Positions 4,341-23,443 of a stretch of DNA of 64,000 nt are shown here, one piece after another. The notes beneath the pieces are model-generated. The model was given only the letters and a program-made list of their open reading frames with translations. It searched no databases and was not told the DNA's origin. The translations under genes and the position numbers were made by a program. Location of the stretch: NCBI RefSeq assembly GCF_002959895.1, contig NZ_PPDD01000004.1:1-64000 (forward strand), read 5' to 3'. This DNA comes from Veillonella infantium. Lineage in GTDB: Bacteria; Bacillota; Negativicutes; Veillonellales; Veillonellaceae. Position 1 is the first letter of the stretch. The number at the start of each line of letters is the position of its first letter.

Positions 4341-5231
4341 ATGAAAGGTTTTACTAAACGTGCTATCCTCGCTGCTTGTGTTGGTGCAGCCATGCTTATT
4401 ACTGTAGGTTGTGGTTCTAATCAAAGTTCTCAATCTACTCAATTGACTTATAATGGTTCCTCCACGTTGGCACCAGTTATTTCTAAAATCGCTACAGATT
4501 TCACAGAGAAAAATAAAACTTGGAATCATGCAGATAGCTCCTTGCCAGATAAAGATATTACTATTTATGTATCTTCTGGTGGTTCTGGCACTGGCATTAA
4601 AGCCGTTATCGATGGTACTGCGGACTTCGGTTTAGTTGCACGGGAAGTAAAAGACAGCGAAAAAGCAAAAATTAAAGATTACAACGAAATCAAAGTAGGT
4701 ATTGATGCGTTGACAATTGCCGTAAATCCTGAAAACCCTTTATACGCAGTAAAAGATAATCTCAGTAAAGAAGAAATTATTAAAATCTTCTCTGGCGAGT
4801 ATAAGACTTGGAATCAAGTAGATCCATCCTTGCCTAACCAAGAAATTATCGTAGTAACACGTGACCTTGGTGGCGGTGCTCATGAAGTATTCCAACAAAA
4901 AATCATGGGTTCTGTAGAGGTAACTAAAGACGCTATTCAAGCTCCATCCATGGGTGCTCTTGTAACTAAAGTTAAAGAAAACCCATATGCTATTGGTTAT
5001 GCATCTTATGGCATGTTGATTCAAAACAAAGGCCAAATCGTTGCTTTCAAAGTTAATGGTGTAGCACCAACAGATGAAACGATTACTGATGGTTCTTACA
5101 TAATTCAACGTCCACTTCTCATCGTAGGTAAAGGTAATATGGGTGGCGTAGCAGACGCTTTCACAAAATACTTGAAGTCTGAAGAAGGCCGTAAAGTTAT
5201 TCATAAAATGGGCTTTGTTCCTGTAAACTAA
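4341..5231 (+). CDS. pstS: Phosphate ABC transporter substrate-binding lipoprotein PstS
   Basis: This is the high-affinity phosphate receptor of the Pst importer. The 296-residue product has a lipoprotein signal peptide with lipobox ITVGC (Cys24), so it is tethered to the outer face of the inner membrane. Phosphate-binding loops typical of PstS are visible: SSTLAP near residue 40 and SSGGSGTG near residue 78. AAGGAG lies 7 bases before the ATG at 4341. A TTG six bases upstream is in frame but badly spaced. It leads pstSCAB and is separated from pstC by a hairpin that should lower expression of the permease genes. Confidence 0.93.
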   Translation: MKGFTKRAILAACVGAAMLITVGCGSNQSSQSTQLTYNGSSTLAPVISKIATDFTEKNKTWNHADSSLPDKDITIYVSSGGSGTGIKAVIDGTADFGLVAREVKDSEKAKIKDYNEIKVGIDALTIAVNPENPLYAVKDNLSKEEIIKIFSGEYKTWNQVDPSLPNQEIIVVTRDLGGGAHEVFQQKIMGSVEVTKDAIQAPSMGALVTKVKENPYAIGYASYGMLIQNKGQIVAFKVNGVAPTDETITDGSYIIQRPLLIVGKGNMGGVADAFTKYLKSEEGRKVIHKMGFVPVN

Positions 5232-16584: not shown

Positions 16585-17925
16585 GTGAATTTACAAATAC
16601 GGATTTGGATATCCAATGTTGTGCTCTTTGTAGTGCCTATTTTGATAGCAATTATCTTATTTTTGCTATACTTTACAGGTCTGCGCATATTGGCTAATGC
16701 CGGTTACTATTTGCGTATTGAGCAGGAACAACAGTTTAAAAGTGTCAGTCGAATCACTGAAACAATTACCTTTTATGGTTTAGAAAACAACTTAATAGAT
16801 ACCTTAGTAAAGCCTAGCTATAGTCTACTCGATCCGAAGGAAGTATATGTAGAGGTACTAGATCAAGGTAATATGGTGTACAGCTATGGTAATCCTCAAA
16901 TCTATAGCGCTTCTGCTATTGTTGGTCTTATTGATGTAAACCCTGAATTACAAGGTATTGTATATCAGTCCAATAATACGTTCGTATATGAAATGCGGAA
17001 ATACGATGGGCGTCATGCTTACGTATATCATATTGCTATAAAGCGCGCTACTCATGGTAGTGATAGCTTAATGGAATCAGTTTCCTTCTATATTATTGTA
17101 GTGGCTATATTACTCTTTATTGTTACATTCTTTGCTATTAACCGATTTGTTACACGCTTTATCATGATTCATGTTAAGAATATGACAAAATCCTTAGAAA
17201 TGGCTAATCGTCAGATTGAAATGGAGCAGGAGCAACAAAAAGAGTTACTAGCAGGGATATCCCATGATATTCGAACGCCGTTAACAGCTATTAAAGCGTA
17301 TGCAGAAGGTGTTCGTGATGGTATTGCACCAACAGAAGAACAACAAAAACGCTACATGGGAATTATTTTAAAACGAGCTAATGATTTAGATTCGATGTTA
17401 GAGGAGTTATTCCTCATTACAACTTTGAATTATAAAAAAGAGTCGCGTCCATCTGAACGAATTGAACTTGGTCAATATGTACGTGATTTTGTAGAAGATC
17501 ATTTGGCTCCTTATCAAACAAGAGGTCTAGAAATTAAATTCCGTATAGCAGCGGAAAATGCTTTCATTAATGCAAACCCACAATTGTTACAGCGGGTTTT
17601 ACAAAATGTGTTGAACAATAGTGCTAAGTATAAAATGGCCGATGTTGGTCATTGTGTTATTGATGTAACTAGTGATGATGATTTTGTATACTGTGTTATC
17701 AGTGATGATGGCCCAGGGGTACCACCAGAATCTCTAGAACGTCTAATGCGTCCATTCTACCGTGTAGATTCATCTCGTACGAATCCACAAGAAGGTAGTG
17801 GTCTTGGATTGTCGATTATTCGTCGAATTATGGAAATCTTTGAAGGCCGAGTTGTGATTGAAAATGTAAGACCACATGGTCTACGTATTATATTAGAATT
17901 TCCTAAACAAGGAGAAGAATCATGA
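16585..17925 (+). CDS. Sensor histidine kinase
   Basis: The 446-residue membrane kinase senses an unknown signal and phosphorylates the downstream regulator. There is an N-terminal membrane segment (about 10-30), an extracytoplasmic domain of about 130 residues, a second membrane segment (about 166-186) and a HAMP-like linker. The H-box GISHDIRTPL has phospho-acceptor His227. ATP-binding N and G boxes follow (NVLNNSAKY, DDGPGVP, GSGLGLS). The start is GTG with a GAGG site. The kinase precedes the regulator, and their genes overlap by four bases (ATGA). Confidence 0.9.
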   Translation: MNLQIRIWISNVVLFVVPILIAIILFLLYFTGLRILANAGYYLRIEQEQQFKSVSRITETITFYGLENNLIDTLVKPSYSLLDPKEVYVEVLDQGNMVYSYGNPQIYSASAIVGLIDVNPELQGIVYQSNNTFVYEMRKYDGRHAYVYHIAIKRATHGSDSLMESVSFYIIVVAILLFIVTFFAINRFVTRFIMIHVKNMTKSLEMANRQIEMEQEQQKELLAGISHDIRTPLTAIKAYAEGVRDGIAPTEEQQKRYMGIILKRANDLDSMLEELFLITTLNYKKESRPSERIELGQYVRDFVEDHLAPYQTRGLEIKFRIAAENAFINANPQLLQRVLQNVLNNSAKYKMADVGHCVIDVTSDDDFVYCVISDDGPGVPPESLERLMRPFYRVDSSRTNPQEGSGLGLSIIRRIMEIFEGRVVIENVRPHGLRIILEFPKQGEES

Positions 17926-18611
17926 GTGAACATATCTTAATTATTGAAGACGATTTGGATATCGCCAATATTGAGCGTGATTATTTGATGGTGGCAGGTT
18001 ATGATGTAACTATTATGACTAATGGTACTGAGGGTATTGAGGCTGCCTTAAATACTCCTGTAGACCTTATCATCCTTGATGTTATGTTGCCAGAAATGGA
18101 TGGTTTTGAAGTTTGCCGCCAAATTCGTGACAAGGTTCGTGTACCAATTGTTATGGTAACAGCTCGTCTCGATGATATCGATAAAATCCGTGGTCTCGGC
18201 GTAGGTGCTGATGACTATATTGAAAAACCATTCTCTCCATCTGTATTGATTGCAAAAATTAAAGCTATGTTGGCACAATATAAACGCTTAACAGAGCGCG
18301 ATGCAATGGAAACTAATGCGATTCAATCTGGAGAAATCCGTCTTGATCCTAAGATGATGAAAGTTTGGGTAAACGAAAAAGAAGTTCACCTTAAAAAGAA
18401 AGAATTCCAGTTATTAGAATTCTTGATGCGCAACCGTGATATCGTATTTAGTAAAGAAGAATTATATTCTCGCGTATGGGGTCTTGACTCTTACGGTGAT
18501 TATGCAACTGTAGCGGTTCATATCAACCGTTTACGTGAAGAAATTGAAGATAATCCATCCGATAGTAAGCACATCATTACTGTATGGGGTGTTGGTTATA
18601 AATTTGTTTAA
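17922..18611 (+). CDS. OmpR-family response regulator
   Basis: The 229-residue product has a receiver domain with acidic pocket EDD (10-12) and phospho-acceptor Asp53 (LIILDVMLPEMDG). It ends in a winged-helix DNA-binding domain (HLKKKEFQLLEFLMRN and VAVHINRLREEIE). It is translationally coupled to the kinase gene. The neighbouring htrA suggests an envelope-stress role, but no operator was identified. Confidence 0.92.
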   Translation: MSEHILIIEDDLDIANIERDYLMVAGYDVTIMTNGTEGIEAALNTPVDLIILDVMLPEMDGFEVCRQIRDKVRVPIVMVTARLDDIDKIRGLGVGADDYIEKPFSPSVLIAKIKAMLAQYKRLTERDAMETNAIQSGEIRLDPKMMKVWVNEKEVHLKKKEFQLLEFLMRNRDIVFSKEELYSRVWGLDSYGDYATVAVHINRLREEIEDNPSDSKHIITVWGVGYKFV

Positions 18612-18731
18612 TGACTGAAAAAAGGTTTCATTTTTAATTCACGTATTTGTTGGCTGTTGATAAAATATGTGTTTGTAGAGAGTTATTATATAGATATAAT
18701 CAAAGGTTTAAAAAATGTTTATATACTTCCT

Positions 18732-18759
18732 TTGATAGTTTAGATATTCCGTGTATACT
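18732..18759 (+). promoter_or_regulatory. Promoter of a second candidate small RNA
   Basis: TTGATA at 18732-18737 and TATACT at 18754-18759 are 16 bases apart. Transcription would start near 18766, exactly at the base of the predicted closing stem. Confidence 0.6.
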
Positions 18760-18765
18760 TATCTA

Positions 18766-18939
18766 GGTAAGGCTGACAATTGATTCTAGATAAAAAATAA
18801 CTAAACTTCTCTCTCTTAATAAGTTCTCTCTCAAACTTATCTAGATCACATATACTCTCTCTCAACAGTCCTTACACTCTCAAACTATATGCATAAAGGG
18901 CATTCCTAGCGACGGCTAGTGAATGCCCTTTATGTTTTT
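18766..18939 (+). ncRNA. Candidate small RNA with three CUCUCUC tracts
   Basis: About 175 bases run from a plausible promoter to a strong terminator with no coding frame. Nested stems are visible: GTAAGG+CTG (18767-18775) with CAG+CCTTAC (18866-18875, one bulged T); a perfect 9-bp TCTAGATAA (18785-18793) with TTATCTAGA (18837-18845); and an inner AACTT/AAGTT hairpin. CTCTCTCT lies in the inner loop, TCTCTCTC between inner stems, and CTCTCTC between outer stems, so all three tracts are unpaired. The terminator is AAAGGGCATTC/GAATGCCCTTT (18895-18931). I recognise no known RNA family. Confidence 0.68.
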
Positions 18940-19188
18940 CTATAGTTGTGTATTTATTATTTAGTCATCATATTTTTATTGTTTTAATATTTTGTTATCT
19001 TGCATTGTAAAAGAATGAGTACTATAATAGTTTTATCACAATTGATTTTATAAAATTTATTGTGATGAAAGTAGATATAACATGATATTACATTGTTGTT
19101 AACGTGTTTATTTTATTCCGATTAGTATTCGAGATAATAATGAATATGGCTCGAAGAGATTAATAAGAAATAATATAAGGAGAGATTA

Positions 19189-20283
19189 ATGAATTTTTCA
19201 AAACATAAGAAATCAATTATTGCCTGTGTGCTCGCACTTGGAATTGGCATAGGTGGTGGATACTATTTCTTTGGTAATCCTGTTACACATCAAGCTACTG
19301 TGAGAGAACAAACGAAACAGACAAAGCCAATTACAGATACACGTAATACGTACGTGGTTCAAGCTGCTAAAGAATCTGGCCCAGCTGTAGTAGGTATTAC
19401 TACGCAAGTTTTCCAAAAGGATATTTTTAATCGTACTATCTATGCTGGAGAAGGTGTAGGATCTGGTGTACTTATTGATAATGATGGACATATTGTAACT
19501 AATAACCATGTTGTAGCGGGCGCTAAAAATGGAGAGGTGACAGTATCTTTGTCTAATGGTTCCACCGTAACAGGTACAGTTATCGGTACAGATGCTCAAA
19601 CAGATTTGGCTGTTGTTAAAATCAATCCTCCAAAGGATATTCAACCAATTAAAATTGGTGACTCTGACTCCTTACAAGTAGGTGAACCTGCTATCGCGAT
19701 TGGCAATCCTTTAGGTCTAGAATTTAAAGGTTCTGTTACATCTGGTGTAATTAGTGCTTTGGCGCGTACTATTGATGATCAAGGGCAGCGATTCCCATTG
19801 ATTCAAACTGATGCAGCTATTAATCCTGGTAATTCTGGTGGTGCTCTCATTAATGCAGATGGTGAGTTAATCGGTATCAATAGCTCTAAGATTTCCAAAG
19901 AAGGCGTTGAAGGTATGGGTTTTGCCATTCCAATCAATTCAGCTATGACAGTTGTAGATTCTATTATTAAAAATGGTAAGGTTGTTCGCCCATATATCGG
20001 TGTATGGGCGGTAGATCGTCAAACAGCAGCACGCAATAATGTAAGTTATGAAGGAGAAGGTCTTCTTATTGTACAATTAGATTCTAATGGTCCTGCATCT
20101 AAAGCAGGGTTAGTAGAAGGTGATACAATCGCTCAAATTGATGGCAAAGATATCACTACATTACTTGAATTAAAAGAGCAAATTGATGCTAAGAGCCCTG
20201 GCGATACAATTTTAGTATCTTATACCCATAATGGTAAAATGAAGAGCGCACAGATTAAATTAGGACAAGCATCTTCAAAATAA
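19189..20283 (+). CDS. htrA: HtrA/DegP-like serine protease
   Basis: The 364-residue envelope protease degrades misfolded exported proteins. It has an N-terminal membrane anchor (about residues 9-28), a trypsin-like domain with triad His107 (VTNNHVV), Asp139 (QTDLAVV) and Ser216 (NPGNSGGAL), and one C-terminal PDZ domain (about 270-360). One PDZ and an uncleaved anchor fit the Gram-positive HtrA/DegS layout rather than two-PDZ DegP. It is a single gene with an AAGGAGAG site and a following terminator. It lies near a two-component system. Confidence 0.92.
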   Translation: MNFSKHKKSIIACVLALGIGIGGGYYFFGNPVTHQATVREQTKQTKPITDTRNTYVVQAAKESGPAVVGITTQVFQKDIFNRTIYAGEGVGSGVLIDNDGHIVTNNHVVAGAKNGEVTVSLSNGSTVTGTVIGTDAQTDLAVVKINPPKDIQPIKIGDSDSLQVGEPAIAIGNPLGLEFKGSVTSGVISALARTIDDQGQRFPLIQTDAAINPGNSGGALINADGELIGINSSKISKEGVEGMGFAIPINSAMTVVDSIIKNGKVVRPYIGVWAVDRQTAARNNVSYEGEGLLIVQLDSNGPASKAGLVEGDTIAQIDGKDITTLLELKEQIDAKSPGDTILVSYTHNGKMKSAQIKLGQASSK

Positions 20284-20444: not shown

Positions 20445-20482
20445 CAAGGTACCTTGCAAACCAAGGTACCTTATGTTATTAT
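20445..20482 (+). promoter_or_regulatory. PadR operator-promoter, copy 1
   Basis: Two 12-bp palindromic boxes, CAAGGTACCTTG (20445-20456) and CAAGGTACCTTA (20462-20473), flank and overlap a promoter: TTGCAA (20454-20459), 17 bases, TATTAT (20477-20482). Binding of a PadR dimer here would block RNA polymerase. The same arrangement recurs at 22051, upstream of the second PadR gene, which supports autoregulation. Confidence 0.8.
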
Positions 20483-20558
20483 GTATTTGTCAGTACAAGA
20501 TAGTGACAGTAAGAGAGCTTTTAAGTTGGCAGGCAAGCACAGCCTAAAAGGAGGAACT

Positions 20559-20873
20559 ATGCAAGTTCAATTAAAAAAAGGTGTTATGGACATGCTAGTA
20601 TTAGCGTTACTAACACAAAATGATCGCTATGGGTACGAAATAGTCAGTAAAATCTCCGAATATATAGAACTCTCGGAAGGTACTATTTATCCACTTTTTA
20701 ACAGATTAAAAAAAGAAAAATATGTAGAAACATATTTGCTGGAATCGCAAACTGGACCATCGCGAAAATATTACAAAATAACTCCCAATGGTACAGTCGC
20801 TTATAATCAGATGCGACAAGAATGGGATGGATTTTCTGGCGTTGTTGATATGCTCTTGAAAGGGGTAGACTAA
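20559..20873 (+). CDS. PadR-family transcriptional regulator, copy 1
   Basis: The 104-residue winged-helix repressor has the PadR features LKKGVMDMLVLALL, DRYGYEIV, SEGTIYPLFNRLKKE and SRKYYKIT. AGGAGG precedes the ATG at 20559. The longer frame from 20454 would begin inside the operator. It is followed by a HAAS-type membrane protein, a common partner. Its close relative at 22186 shares the same operator sequence, so each may control both operons. Confidence 0.92.
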   Translation: MQVQLKKGVMDMLVLALLTQNDRYGYEIVSKISEYIELSEGTIYPLFNRLKKEKYVETYLLESQTGPSRKYYKITPNGTVAYNQMRQEWDGFSGVVDMLLKGVD

Positions 20874-20874
20874 A

Positions 20875-21429
20875 ATGAATAAACAAGAATTTTTGAACAC
20901 ATTACGTATTATTTTTAAAAAAGCAAATGTTTTAGATGTAGAAAGTATCATTGATGTATACGAAGAACATTTTGCTGTAGGGTATGAGAAAGGTCTTGAT
21001 GATGAACAAATCATTAAATCATTAGGTACTCCAAAAGAAATTTATACATCCTATGTAGAGGCAGGTATCATCACTGATGAAATCGGACAAGAAGGTACTA
21101 AAAGAACAGTTAACATGCAAGCAATATATAAACGACTTGAAGATTATAAAGCCCTTTTGTTACCACAGTTACCAGGGGTGGCTAAAAAAGCATCTCATAC
21201 ATTATTAACAGTAGCTAGTGCTCTTACCTATATTGTTGGGGTATTACTATTTATCGTGACACCAGCGATTTTATTTTTGTTAAGTGGTTCATGGCAACCA
21301 TTAGCAAATGTTACACCACTTCCTGCTGTATCGATTGTTACTATGGCGGGAATTGCGGGATTAGGTTTATTTGGTGGCTTGACATGCATCTATGCTGGCA
21401 GTGAGCTTAATAATGTATGTAAGCGTTAA
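20875..21429 (+). CDS. HAAS/DUF1700 membrane protein, copy 1
   Basis: The 184-residue product has a cytoplasmic helical N-terminal domain (MNKQEFLNTLRIIFKKA, SIIDVYEEHFAVGYEKG, SLGTPKEIYTSY), typical of the DUF1700/HAAS domain that is usually paired with PadR. Two membrane segments follow (about 106-128 and 145-170). It probably senses or responds to an envelope state together with PadR, but the ligand is unknown. It starts one base after the PadR stop codon. Confidence 0.85.
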   Translation: MNKQEFLNTLRIIFKKANVLDVESIIDVYEEHFAVGYEKGLDDEQIIKSLGTPKEIYTSYVEAGIITDEIGQEGTKRTVNMQAIYKRLEDYKALLLPQLPGVAKKASHTLLTVASALTYIVGVLLFIVTPAILFLLSGSWQPLANVTPLPAVSIVTMAGIAGLGLFGGLTCIYAGSELNNVCKR

Positions 21430-21473
21430 TTTGATACATTGAAATATTAGATAGAATGAACTAAGGAGATACT

Positions 21474-21980
21474 ATGAAACGGATTATAATTACAGCAATT
21501 TTAGCAGCTATTTGCACAGTAGGGGGCGCAACTTCTTTTGTTATGAATGATTTACCAAGCTATACTGCATGGAAACAAGATAATGCGCAACAATTTAAGC
21601 ATACATCAAAACACGATGGTATAGATCAACAAAATGATAAACAATTTGACAACGATAAAGATCATAAGAATGTAAAAGATTATAAGGACCATAAAGATCA
21701 TAAGGATCAAAAGGACCGTAAGGACCATAAGGATCAAAAGGACCGTAAGGACCATAAGGATCAAAAAGATCATAAAGACCATAAAGACCATAGAGACTAT
21801 GACCACGAAATGAATAATATGCCTAATACACCAACTCAACCACAAGGTCAAATGCCTGCAACAGGTTCTGTACCAGCATCAGAACAAGCAGCTCAACCAG
21901 CTCAACCGGTTCAACAACCTGCTAATGGAGTAACTCAAGCACCTAATATGCAATCAAGTGCCGACCAAAGTGGGCAATAA
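21474..21980 (+). CDS. Small secreted low-complexity protein, Lys/Asp/His repeat type
   Basis: The 168-residue product has a signal peptide (about 1-24) followed by a conserved short segment (NDLPSYTAWKQDNAQQF). It then has a highly charged repeat of KDHKDQKDR-type units (about residues 62-104), encoded by a nearly exact 27-bp DNA repeat, and a Gln/Pro/Ala-rich tail. The repeats may bind metal or anions, but no family was recognised. It shares N-terminal pattern and position with the proteins at 23087 and 23567. Confidence 0.75.
   Translation: MKRIIITAILAAICTVGGATSFVMNDLPSYTAWKQDNAQQFKHTSKHDGIDQQNDKQFDNDKDHKNVKDYKDHKDHKDQKDRKDHKDQKDRKDHKDQKDHKDHKDHRDYDHEMNNMPNTPTQPQGQMPATGSVPASEQAAQPAQPVQQPANGVTQAPNMQSSADQSGQ
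21675..21785 (+). repeat. Coding tandem repeat with 27-bp unit
   Basis: The unit AAGGACCATAAGGATCAA plus AAGGACCGT recurs almost exactly and then degenerates. It encodes KDHKDQKDR. Such exact DNA repeats predict length variation between strains. Confidence 0.8.
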
Positions 21981-22185: not shown

Positions 22186-22509
22186 ATGCAAGTTCAGTTA
22201 AAAAAAGGTGTTATGGACATGCTTGTACTAGCATTATTAACACAAAGTGATCGCTATGGATATGAAATTGTTAGCACCATTTCAGAATATATTGAAATTT
22301 CGGAAGGAACTATATATCCATTATTTAATAGATTGAAAAAAGAAAAGTATGTTGAAACGTATTTAAAGGAGTCCTCTTCGGGACCATCTCGAAAATACTA
22401 TCATATTACAGATGATGGGCGTGCAGCATACAATCAGATGCGTCGAGAATGGAATGAGTTTTCTGGCGTTGTAAATATCCTGTTGAAAGGAGTCGACTAT
22501 AATGAATAA
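22186..22509 (+). CDS. PadR-family transcriptional regulator, copy 2
   Basis: This 107-residue paralogue of the PadR at 20559 is nearly identical through the DNA-binding helix (SEGTIYPLFNRLKKEKYVET), so both should read the same operator. They differ mainly near the C-terminus, which ends VDYNE here. AGGAGG precedes the ATG. It overlaps the next gene by eight bases. Confidence 0.92.
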   Translation: MQVQLKKGVMDMLVLALLTQSDRYGYEIVSTISEYIEISEGTIYPLFNRLKKEKYVETYLKESSSGPSRKYYHITDDGRAAYNQMRREWNEFSGVVNILLKGVDYNE

Positions 22510-23077
22510 GAATAGCTTTTTAGAAGCACTACGTAATATCTTCAAAAAGGCACATGTTGCTGATGTTGAAAGTATTATAGAGGTTTATGAAGAACACTTT
22601 GCAGTAGGGTATGAAAGAGGTCTTTCAGATAGTGAAATTATTAAAGCATTAGGGACCCCAGAGGAAATCTATGCGTCTTATGTAGATGCAGGTATCATTA
22701 CAGAGACTTTGACTCAAGATGGTAGTAAAAGTAAATCTGTTAATATGGAAGCTATCTATGCAAGATTTGAAGATTACAAAGAGCGCTTGTTACCTCAGTT
22801 ACCAGGAATGGCAAAAAAAGCATCCAAAACATTACTATCTATTGGTAGTGCTTTATCATATATCGTAGGGGTTCTGCTGTTTATTATTACGCCAGCAATC
22901 CTGTATCTATTGGGGAGCTCTTGGCAACCATTTGAGAATGTAACAGCATTTCCGGCATTATCTTTAATAACATTAGTGGCGCTTGGCGGCGTAGGGCTTT
23001 TCGGAGGCCTTGTATGTATCTTTGTTGGCATTGAGCTTCGCGGCGTACGTGAGCGTTACTTTCAAAATATAGATTAA
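22502..23077 (+). CDS. HAAS/DUF1700 membrane protein, copy 2
   Basis: The 191-residue paralogue of the protein at 20875 has the same helical N-terminal domain (VESIIEVYEEHFAVGYERG, ALGTPEEIYASY) and two membrane segments (about 108-130 and 150-172). It is translationally coupled to PadR copy 2. The conserved domain but diverged flanks suggest that the duplicate systems are insulated at the protein-protein level. Confidence 0.85.
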   Translation: MNKNSFLEALRNIFKKAHVADVESIIEVYEEHFAVGYERGLSDSEIIKALGTPEEIYASYVDAGIITETLTQDGSKSKSVNMEAIYARFEDYKERLLPQLPGMAKKASKTLLSIGSALSYIVGVLLFIITPAILYLLGSSWQPFENVTAFPALSLITLVALGGVGLFGGLVCIFVGIELRGVRERYFQNID

Positions 23078-23086
23078 GGAGGACCT

Positions 23087-23443
23087 ATGAGACGAATTAT
23101 AATTGCTGCCATTCTAACAGTAATCTGTGCTGTTGGGGCAGGTACATCATTTGCTGTAAATGATCTACCAAATTTTGGCGAATGGATGAAAACGAATGAA
23201 CAACAGTTCAGAAAACCACATAGACATGATGGTCCTAATATGCATATGGATAAACATATGATGGATGGAAATAATCAAATGATGCCTCAAGGCGGTATGG
23301 GGCCAAACAATGGTGGACATATGCACTCAAATGGTCAAATGTCTCCACAAGGCCAACCACCTCAAGGTCAACCACCTCAAGGTTCGCAACCTAATGGTAA
23401 TGCTCCACAACAAGCACCTAATGGTGAGACACAAGCTCAATAA
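23087..23443 (+). CDS. Small secreted Met/His/Pro/Gln-rich protein
   Basis: The 118-residue product has a signal peptide (about 1-23), then a NDLPNFGEWMKTNEQQF segment shared with the protein at 21474. A Met/His-rich stretch (HRHDGPNMHMDKHMMDG) and Pro/Gln/Gly repeats (SPQGQPPQGQPPQG) follow. Met/His clusters often bind copper or other soft metals in exported proteins; that is inference here. It is the last gene of cassette 2. Confidence 0.75.
   Translation: MRRIIIAAILTVICAVGAGTSFAVNDLPNFGEWMKTNEQQFRKPHRHDGPNMHMDKHMMDGNNQMMPQGGMGPNNGGHMHSNGQMSPQGQPPQGQPPQGSQPNGNAPQQAPNGETQAQ

What the first reader, a model, noticed from the sequence alone, without database searches (positions are those of the whole stretch)
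18766..18939. Structured RNA presenting three CUCUCUC tracts
Between the two-component system and htrA, a promoter leads into nested stems (closing GTAAGG...CCTTAC, 9-bp TCTAGATAA/TTATCTAGA, inner AACTT/AAGTT) that leave three CUCUCUC tracts unpaired, followed by a strong terminator. The predicted start site falls at the first base of the closing stem, which supports the model. Its neighbours suggest an envelope-stress regulon.
Basis: partly seen in the sequence, partly recalled or inferred. Interest (0 to 1): 0.72.

Follow-up and report, generated by a model that had tools for sequence, protein, structure and literature searches.

The report
Conserved CU-tract small RNA in Veillonella

Summary
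The window is Veillonella. At 18766-18939, between an OmpR-type two-component system and htrA, lies an about 173-nt RNA gene with its own promoter and terminator. It occurs at the same place in 12 of 14 Veillonella species genomes and, beyond weak terminator-like hits, nowhere else in 61 genomes of the order. Its stems covary strongly: 98.2% of cells pair, 19 pairs change on both sides, and 0 of 500 shuffles match. The CU tracts stay essentially invariant and unpaired. The RNA tracks the response regulator (both missing in the same two species), not htrA, which keeps its own promoter. Upstream lies TTTAAR-N5-TTTATA, spaced like the streptococcal CiaR box. No Rfam family fits, and Hfq was found in none of 12 Veillonella genomes. 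A second, sequence-unrelated CU-tract RNA exists in 7 species.

Best model: a response-regulator-controlled, Hfq-independent sRNA whose CU tracts bind AGAGAG-type Shine-Dalgarno sites, working like Listeria LhrC or streptococcal csRNAs but a member of neither. Candidate targets (accessory OmpM porins, exported proteins) are suggestive only; expression, regulation and targets are untested.

The parts
18707..18723 (+). Direct repeat TTTAAA-N5-TTTATA (11-bp period), probable response-regulator box; a further half-site-like TTTAGA lies at 18739-18744
   Evidence: TTTAAR-N5-TTTATA or close variants conserved upstream of the RNA in the related species; same spacing as the CiaR repeat TTTAAG-N5-TTTAAG (PMC3091779). 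Binding inferred.
18732..18759 (+). Promoter: TTGATA (18732-18737), 16 nt, TATACT (18754-18759)
   Evidence: TATACT in all 12 species, -35 degenerate in divergent species
18766..18939 (+). Small RNA, predicted start 18766/18767, predicted end in the U run about 18939
   Evidence: Homologues in 12 of 14 Veillonella genomes; covariation
18767..18875 (+). Closing stem P1: GTAAGG 18767-18772 with CCTTAC 18870-18875, extension CTG 18773-18775 with CAG 18866-18868
   Evidence: outer 6 pairs invariant, 3 inner pairs covary
18781..18848 (+). Stem P2: 18781-18784 with 18845-18848 and 18786-18793 with 18837-18844
   Evidence: 6 of the 8 inner pairs change on both sides across species
18804..18825 (+). 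Inner stem P3 AACTT/AAGTT (18804-18808 with 18821-18825), 12-nt loop
   Evidence: invariant, so not tested by covariation
18809..18816 (+). CU tract 1 (CUCUCUCU), in the loop of P3
   Evidence: invariant, P(unpaired) 0.95
18826..18832 (+). CU tract 2 (CUCUCUC), between P3 and P2
   Evidence: near-invariant (CUCUCU in three species), P(unpaired) 0.99
18855..18863 (+). CU tract 3 (CUCUCUCUC), between P2 and P1
   Evidence: conserved (one CU unit longer in some species), P(unpaired) 0.96
18877..18881 (+).
   Evidence: invariant CUCUCAA in 12 species, P(unpaired) 1.00 in the window
18891..18939 (+). Intrinsic terminator, 20-bp stem, UUAUGUUUUU tail
   Evidence: 9 pairs change on both sides
16585..17925 (+). 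Sensor histidine kinase (HisKA, HATPase_c); no equivalog cut-off reached
17922..18611 (+). OmpR-type response regulator; ortholog (86-100% identical) present in exactly the 12 species that have the RNA
19000..19028 (+). Separate htrA promoter TTGCAT-N17-TATAAT
   Evidence: similar promoter-like sequence upstream of htrA in nearly all species, also in G003, which lacks the RNA
19189..20283 (+). HtrA/Do-family serine protease

Best explanation
This is a genus-wide trans-acting small regulatory RNA of Veillonella. The adjacent OmpR-type response regulator probably switches it on through the TTTAAR-N5-TTTATA repeat. Once made, its covarying stems act as a scaffold that keeps three or four CUCUC(UC) tracts single-stranded. 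Each tract is complementary to AGAGAG/GAGAGAG-type Shine-Dalgarno sequences. The RNA probably blocks translation initiation of a limited set of mRNAs, with candidates including exported and outer-membrane proteins such as accessory OmpM porins. It would work without Hfq, several redundant tracts giving avidity or several targets per molecule. Shown by sequence: RNA gene, structure, conserved tracts predicted unpaired, linkage to the regulator, no detectable Hfq. Inferred: control by the regulator, Shine-Dalgarno binding, identity of the targets.
For: Homologues at the same site in 12 of 14 Veillonella genomes. Covariation: 98.2% paired, 19 pairs with two-sided change, covariation score 0.309 against 0.125 shuffled and at most 0.090 slid. 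Tracts invariant or nearly so while the linkers vary and mostly predicted unpaired. Same phyletic pattern as the response-regulator ortholog, with htrA independent of it. Upstream repeat with CiaR-like spacing. No Hfq in 12 Veillonella genomes while the search rings in order relatives and controls. A GA run of 6 or more occurs in only about 2-3% of Shine-Dalgarno regions, so the complement is selective and not the default Shine-Dalgarno. Accessory OmpM Shine-Dalgarno sites read GAGAGAAGG (4 species), GAGAGTGGG (V. atypica) or GAGAGAGG, complementary to tracts of the RNA, while the main OmpM reads AGAAAGAAGG. A second RNA with the same display of CU tracts exists in 7 species.
Against: No expression data and no mapped 5' end. 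An energy-based target ranking did not enrich exported proteins. The enrichment seen for exact GAGAGAG sites (19 of 41 ortholog clusters against 25.3% background, p 0.003) shrinks against strong-SD controls, which themselves run at 32-34% exported. Within the sampled stretches few targets were conserved across species (nfeD-like is the best). Co-loss with the regulator may simply reflect one deletion of a linked block.
Confidence: 0.62

Rival explanations
1. A protein-binding decoy: the unpaired CU tracts titrate a pyrimidine-tract-binding protein (for example Rho, whose primary site prefers YC dimers, or an unknown RNA chaperone), as CsrA-sponge RNAs do for CsrA.
For: Several identical short motifs held single-stranded on a covarying scaffold is the anatomy of a protein sponge. 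Target signals are weak. A second, sequence-unrelated RNA shows the same motif.
Against: No bacterial protein binding CU repeats was identified here; base pairing to Shine-Dalgarno sites explains the same motif without an unknown protein.
Confidence: 0.2
2. A cis-acting leader or attenuator of htrA: transcription starts upstream and the terminator is conditionally read through.
For: The RNA always lies upstream of htrA on the same strand.
Against: htrA has its own conserved promoter, seen also in a species lacking the RNA. The terminator is a 20-bp stem with no competing antiterminator in any fold. The spacing to htrA varies widely between species.
Confidence: 0.08
3. A 3' UTR-derived or read-through product of the response-regulator mRNA rather than an independent gene.
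For: It lies just downstream of the regulator on the same strand; its absence coincides with absence of the regulator.
Against: A conserved -10 six to nine bases before the closing stem in all 12 species and a conserved upstream repeat.
Confidence: 0.1

Closest known systems
LhrC1-5 of Listeria monocytogenes (LisRK-controlled)
   Same: About 110-nt sRNA with three redundant CU-rich sites in loops and single-stranded parts that block translation of a cell-wall protein; depends on a two-component system for envelope stress; does not need Hfq for that (PMC4132741).
   Different: LhrC uses a UCCC/CUCCC core and five near-identical copies. Here the motif is a strict CU repeat without CCC, nested in one closed domain, in a single copy plus one unrelated RNA. 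No Rfam match.
csRNAs of streptococci (CiaRH-controlled)
   Same: Two-component-controlled sRNAs with an unpaired anti-Shine-Dalgarno region; promoter repeat TTTAAG-N5-TTTAAG (PMC3091779) resembles TTTAAR-N5-TTTATA here.
   Different: csRNAs carry an anti-SD/anti-AUG stretch between two hairpins, in several similar copies. Here several CU tracts lie within nested stems with no anti-AUG, and the box lies further upstream of the -10.
Outer-membrane-protein-repressing envelope-stress sRNAs of Escherichia coli (general knowledge: MicA, RybB)
   Same: Would link envelope sensing to repression of outer-membrane proteins in a diderm.
   Different: Those depend on Hfq and sigma-E. Veillonella has no detectable Hfq and control here would be by a response regulator. 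The target link is only suggestive.

Membership tests
LhrC family | Sequence/structure match to known RNA families (Rfam, LhrC included) | tested here: not met
   No Rfam family at gathering threshold; weak chance hits only
LhrC family | Several redundant unpaired CU-rich sites | tested here: met
   Four conserved tracts, mostly predicted unpaired, but without the UCCC core
LhrC family | Multiple near-identical copies | tested here: not met
   One copy per genome; a second CU-tract RNA is unrelated in sequence
LhrC family | Expression dependent on an envelope-stress two-component system | not testable with these tools
   Only genomic linkage and co-occurrence with the regulator
csRNA (CiaR-dependent) | CiaR repeat TTTAAG-N5-TTTAAG ten bases upstream of the -10 | tested here: not met
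   TTTAAR-N5-TTTATA with the same spacing but about 30 nt upstream of the -10
csRNA (CiaR-dependent) | Anti-Shine-Dalgarno plus anti-start-codon stretch between two hairpins | tested here: not met
   Different architecture: tracts inside nested stems
TCS-controlled anti-Shine-Dalgarno sRNA (functional class) | Base pairing to Shine-Dalgarno regions of mRNAs | tested here: inconclusive
   GAGAGAG-SD genes exist and some are conserved, but target-class enrichment is weak
Hfq-dependent sRNA | Hfq in the genome | tested here: not met
   0 of 12 Veillonella genomes; positive controls ring

The most novel reading that the evidence does not exclude
A new family of CU-repeat display RNAs in a diderm Firmicute: structurally unrelated scaffolds (nested stems in one, a probable pseudoknot in the other) have each come to present single-stranded CUCUCUC tracts, forming an Hfq-free network in which a two-component system silences accessory outer-membrane proteins, or titrates an unknown CU-binding RNA chaperone that stands in for Hfq.
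Probability: 0.25. Interest if true: 0.78.

Novelty: new variant of a known kind. Interest (0 to 1): 0.6.

Why it matters
Veillonella is a diderm Firmicute with genetic tools, an outer membrane tethered by OmpM, and no detectable Hfq; I found no description of its small RNAs in the held literature. A conserved, regulator-linked, multi-tract RNA gives a concrete entry point to how outer-membrane protein synthesis may be controlled after transcription in this lineage. It also shows the LhrC/csRNA kind of circuit (two-component system to pyrimidine-tract sRNA) in another architecture.

Tried and rejected
Rfam scans of the window and of both RNAs: only tRNAs and chance hits. Homologues outside Veillonella: only weak hits; the five places inspected were terminator-like stems or coding DNA. 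Energy-based target ranking against controls: no enrichment of exported proteins. Exact GAGAGAG SD genes: apparent enrichment weakened by the strong-SD control. Main OmpM as target: its SD AGAAAGAAGG fits poorly. htrA as conserved direct target: AAGGAGAGA in some species only. Shared regulator box upstream of the second RNA: score near the 99th percentile of background in three genomes but poor in the other orthologs, so inconclusive. Literature on Veillonella sRNAs: nothing on this RNA.

Full report
What is there. Between an OmpR-type two-component system (histidine kinase 16585-17925, response regulator 17922-18611) and htrA (19189-20283) lies the reported RNA. The described sequence, stems and tracts are present as stated. 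The fold gives -50 kcal/mol (z -8.1) with the terminator and -17.4 (z -3.3) without it.

Is it more than chance? Yes. A DNA search finds it in 12 of 14 Veillonella species genomes, always upstream of htrA and downstream of the regulator. A covariance model finds the same 12 and only weak hits elsewhere in 61 genomes of the order; the five weak places inspected were terminator-like stems or coding DNA. On a structure-guided alignment, 98.2% of cells pair, 19 pairs change on both sides (shuffles 8.0), and sliding the partners drops pairing to 35-48%. That alignment was fitted to the structure, which leans the counts towards it. The middle stem changes most (6 of 8 pairs on both sides), the terminator also (9 pairs), while AACUUCUCUCUCUUAAYAAGUUCUCUCU is invariant and the third and fourth tracts are conserved. 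The tracts are mostly predicted unpaired; in the most divergent species two of them drop to 0.64-0.73. Variable but paired stems holding invariant unpaired tracts suggest that the stems serve as a scaffold to present the CU tracts. The innermost 5-bp stem never varies, so covariation says nothing on it. A fourth tract, CUCUC at 18877-18881, is also invariant.

Transcription unit. TATACT lies 6-9 bases before GTAAGG in all species. The -35 is poor in divergent species, which fits an activated promoter. Upstream sits TTTAAR-N5-TTTATA (18707-18723), with half-sites 11 bp apart and a further TTTAGA 21 bp downstream. The streptococcal CiaR box has the same spacing (TTTAAG-N5-TTTAAG; PMC3091779). 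htrA has its own promoter TTGCAT-N17-TATAAT, with a similar one even in a species lacking the RNA. The two species that lack the RNA (G003, G006) also lack the close regulator ortholog but keep htrA. The RNA therefore belongs with the two-component system rather than with htrA, though one block deletion could also explain this.

A second RNA. Searching for GAGAGAG sites upstream of genes turned up, on the opposite strand, a second CU-tract RNA (G000 contig 7, about 231110-230960, minus strand). It lies next to a DUF554-like gene (name from my own knowledge, not tested), is conserved in 7 species and is unrelated in primary sequence, though the first RNA's model finds it weakly (E about 0.005). 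Its 5' hairpin covaries (two pairs); the hairpin loop AUAGC is invariantly complementary to GCUAU downstream (a probable pseudoknot, not tested by covariation); a CCCGCUU/AAGCGGG stem holds a long CU tract. Two different scaffolds presenting the same tract argue that the tract is the working part.

How it probably works. Veillonella has no detectable Hfq (0 of 12 genomes). The tracts complement AGAGAG. In about 1000 sampled genes of three species such runs of 6 or more occur in about 2-3% of Shine-Dalgarno regions, so the complement is selective. Genes with an exact GAGAGAG Shine-Dalgarno in five species and the window's own genome form 41 ortholog clusters. They include an oligopeptide-permease OppC-like subunit (4 species), an exported 190-aa protein (3), LemA-like proteins, LptC (V. 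atypica), autotransporter-like proteins and accessory OmpM porins. Of these clusters 46% have a hydrophobic N-terminus against 25% in the background (p 0.003), but strong-SD genes in general run at 32-34%, and an energy ranking gave no enrichment. An accessory OmpM carries GAGAGAAGG in four species (tract 1 complement) and GAGAGTGGG in V. atypica (tract 4 complement), whereas the main OmpM does not fit. I regard envelope-protein targeting as suggestive, not shown.

Comparison. It works most like LhrC of Listeria (three redundant CU-rich sites, LisRK control, Hfq not needed; PMC4132741) and like streptococcal csRNAs. It is a member of neither: no Rfam match, no UCCC core, no multiple copies, different architecture and a different position of the upstream box. 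I found no paper describing it, within a library that lacks most subscription journals. It is best called a new variant of a known kind.

Limits. Nothing here shows expression, regulation or a target. Gene calls in the target analysis were made by a simple script on about 15-20% of three genomes, and pattern hits in one genome (G012) were truncated by the listing.

Noticed in passing
G000 contig 7, about 231110-230960 minus strand (L097 about 1640-1489, minus strand); outside the window: Second CU-tract RNA with its own promoter-like -10, covarying 5' hairpin, invariant loop-to-3' complementarity (probable pseudoknot) and terminator; conserved in 7 Veillonella species, no Rfam match.
   Followed up: partly
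L091 1498-1590 (G000 contig 8, about 4815-4907, +): CU tracts (TCTCTCTCATCTCT, CCTCTC) lie between the end of a gene and a terminator-like stem; possible 3' UTR-derived RNA of similar kind.
   Followed up: no
window 20454-21980 and 22186-23443: Tandemly duplicated three-gene cassette: PadR-type regulator, HAAS-domain membrane protein, small exported low-complexity protein (KDHKDQ or His/Met-rich).
   Followed up: no
window 19035-19066: Inverted repeat ATCACAATTGATTTTATAAAATTTATTGTGAT in the htrA leader, similar palindromes in several other species; possible operator or leader hairpin.
   Followed up: no
G002, G013, G000, G005, G008, G011 OmpM loci (L252, L261, L232-L236): Accessory OmpM copies use GAGAGA-type Shine-Dalgarno sites while the main OmpM copies use AGAAAGAAGG.
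   Followed up: partly
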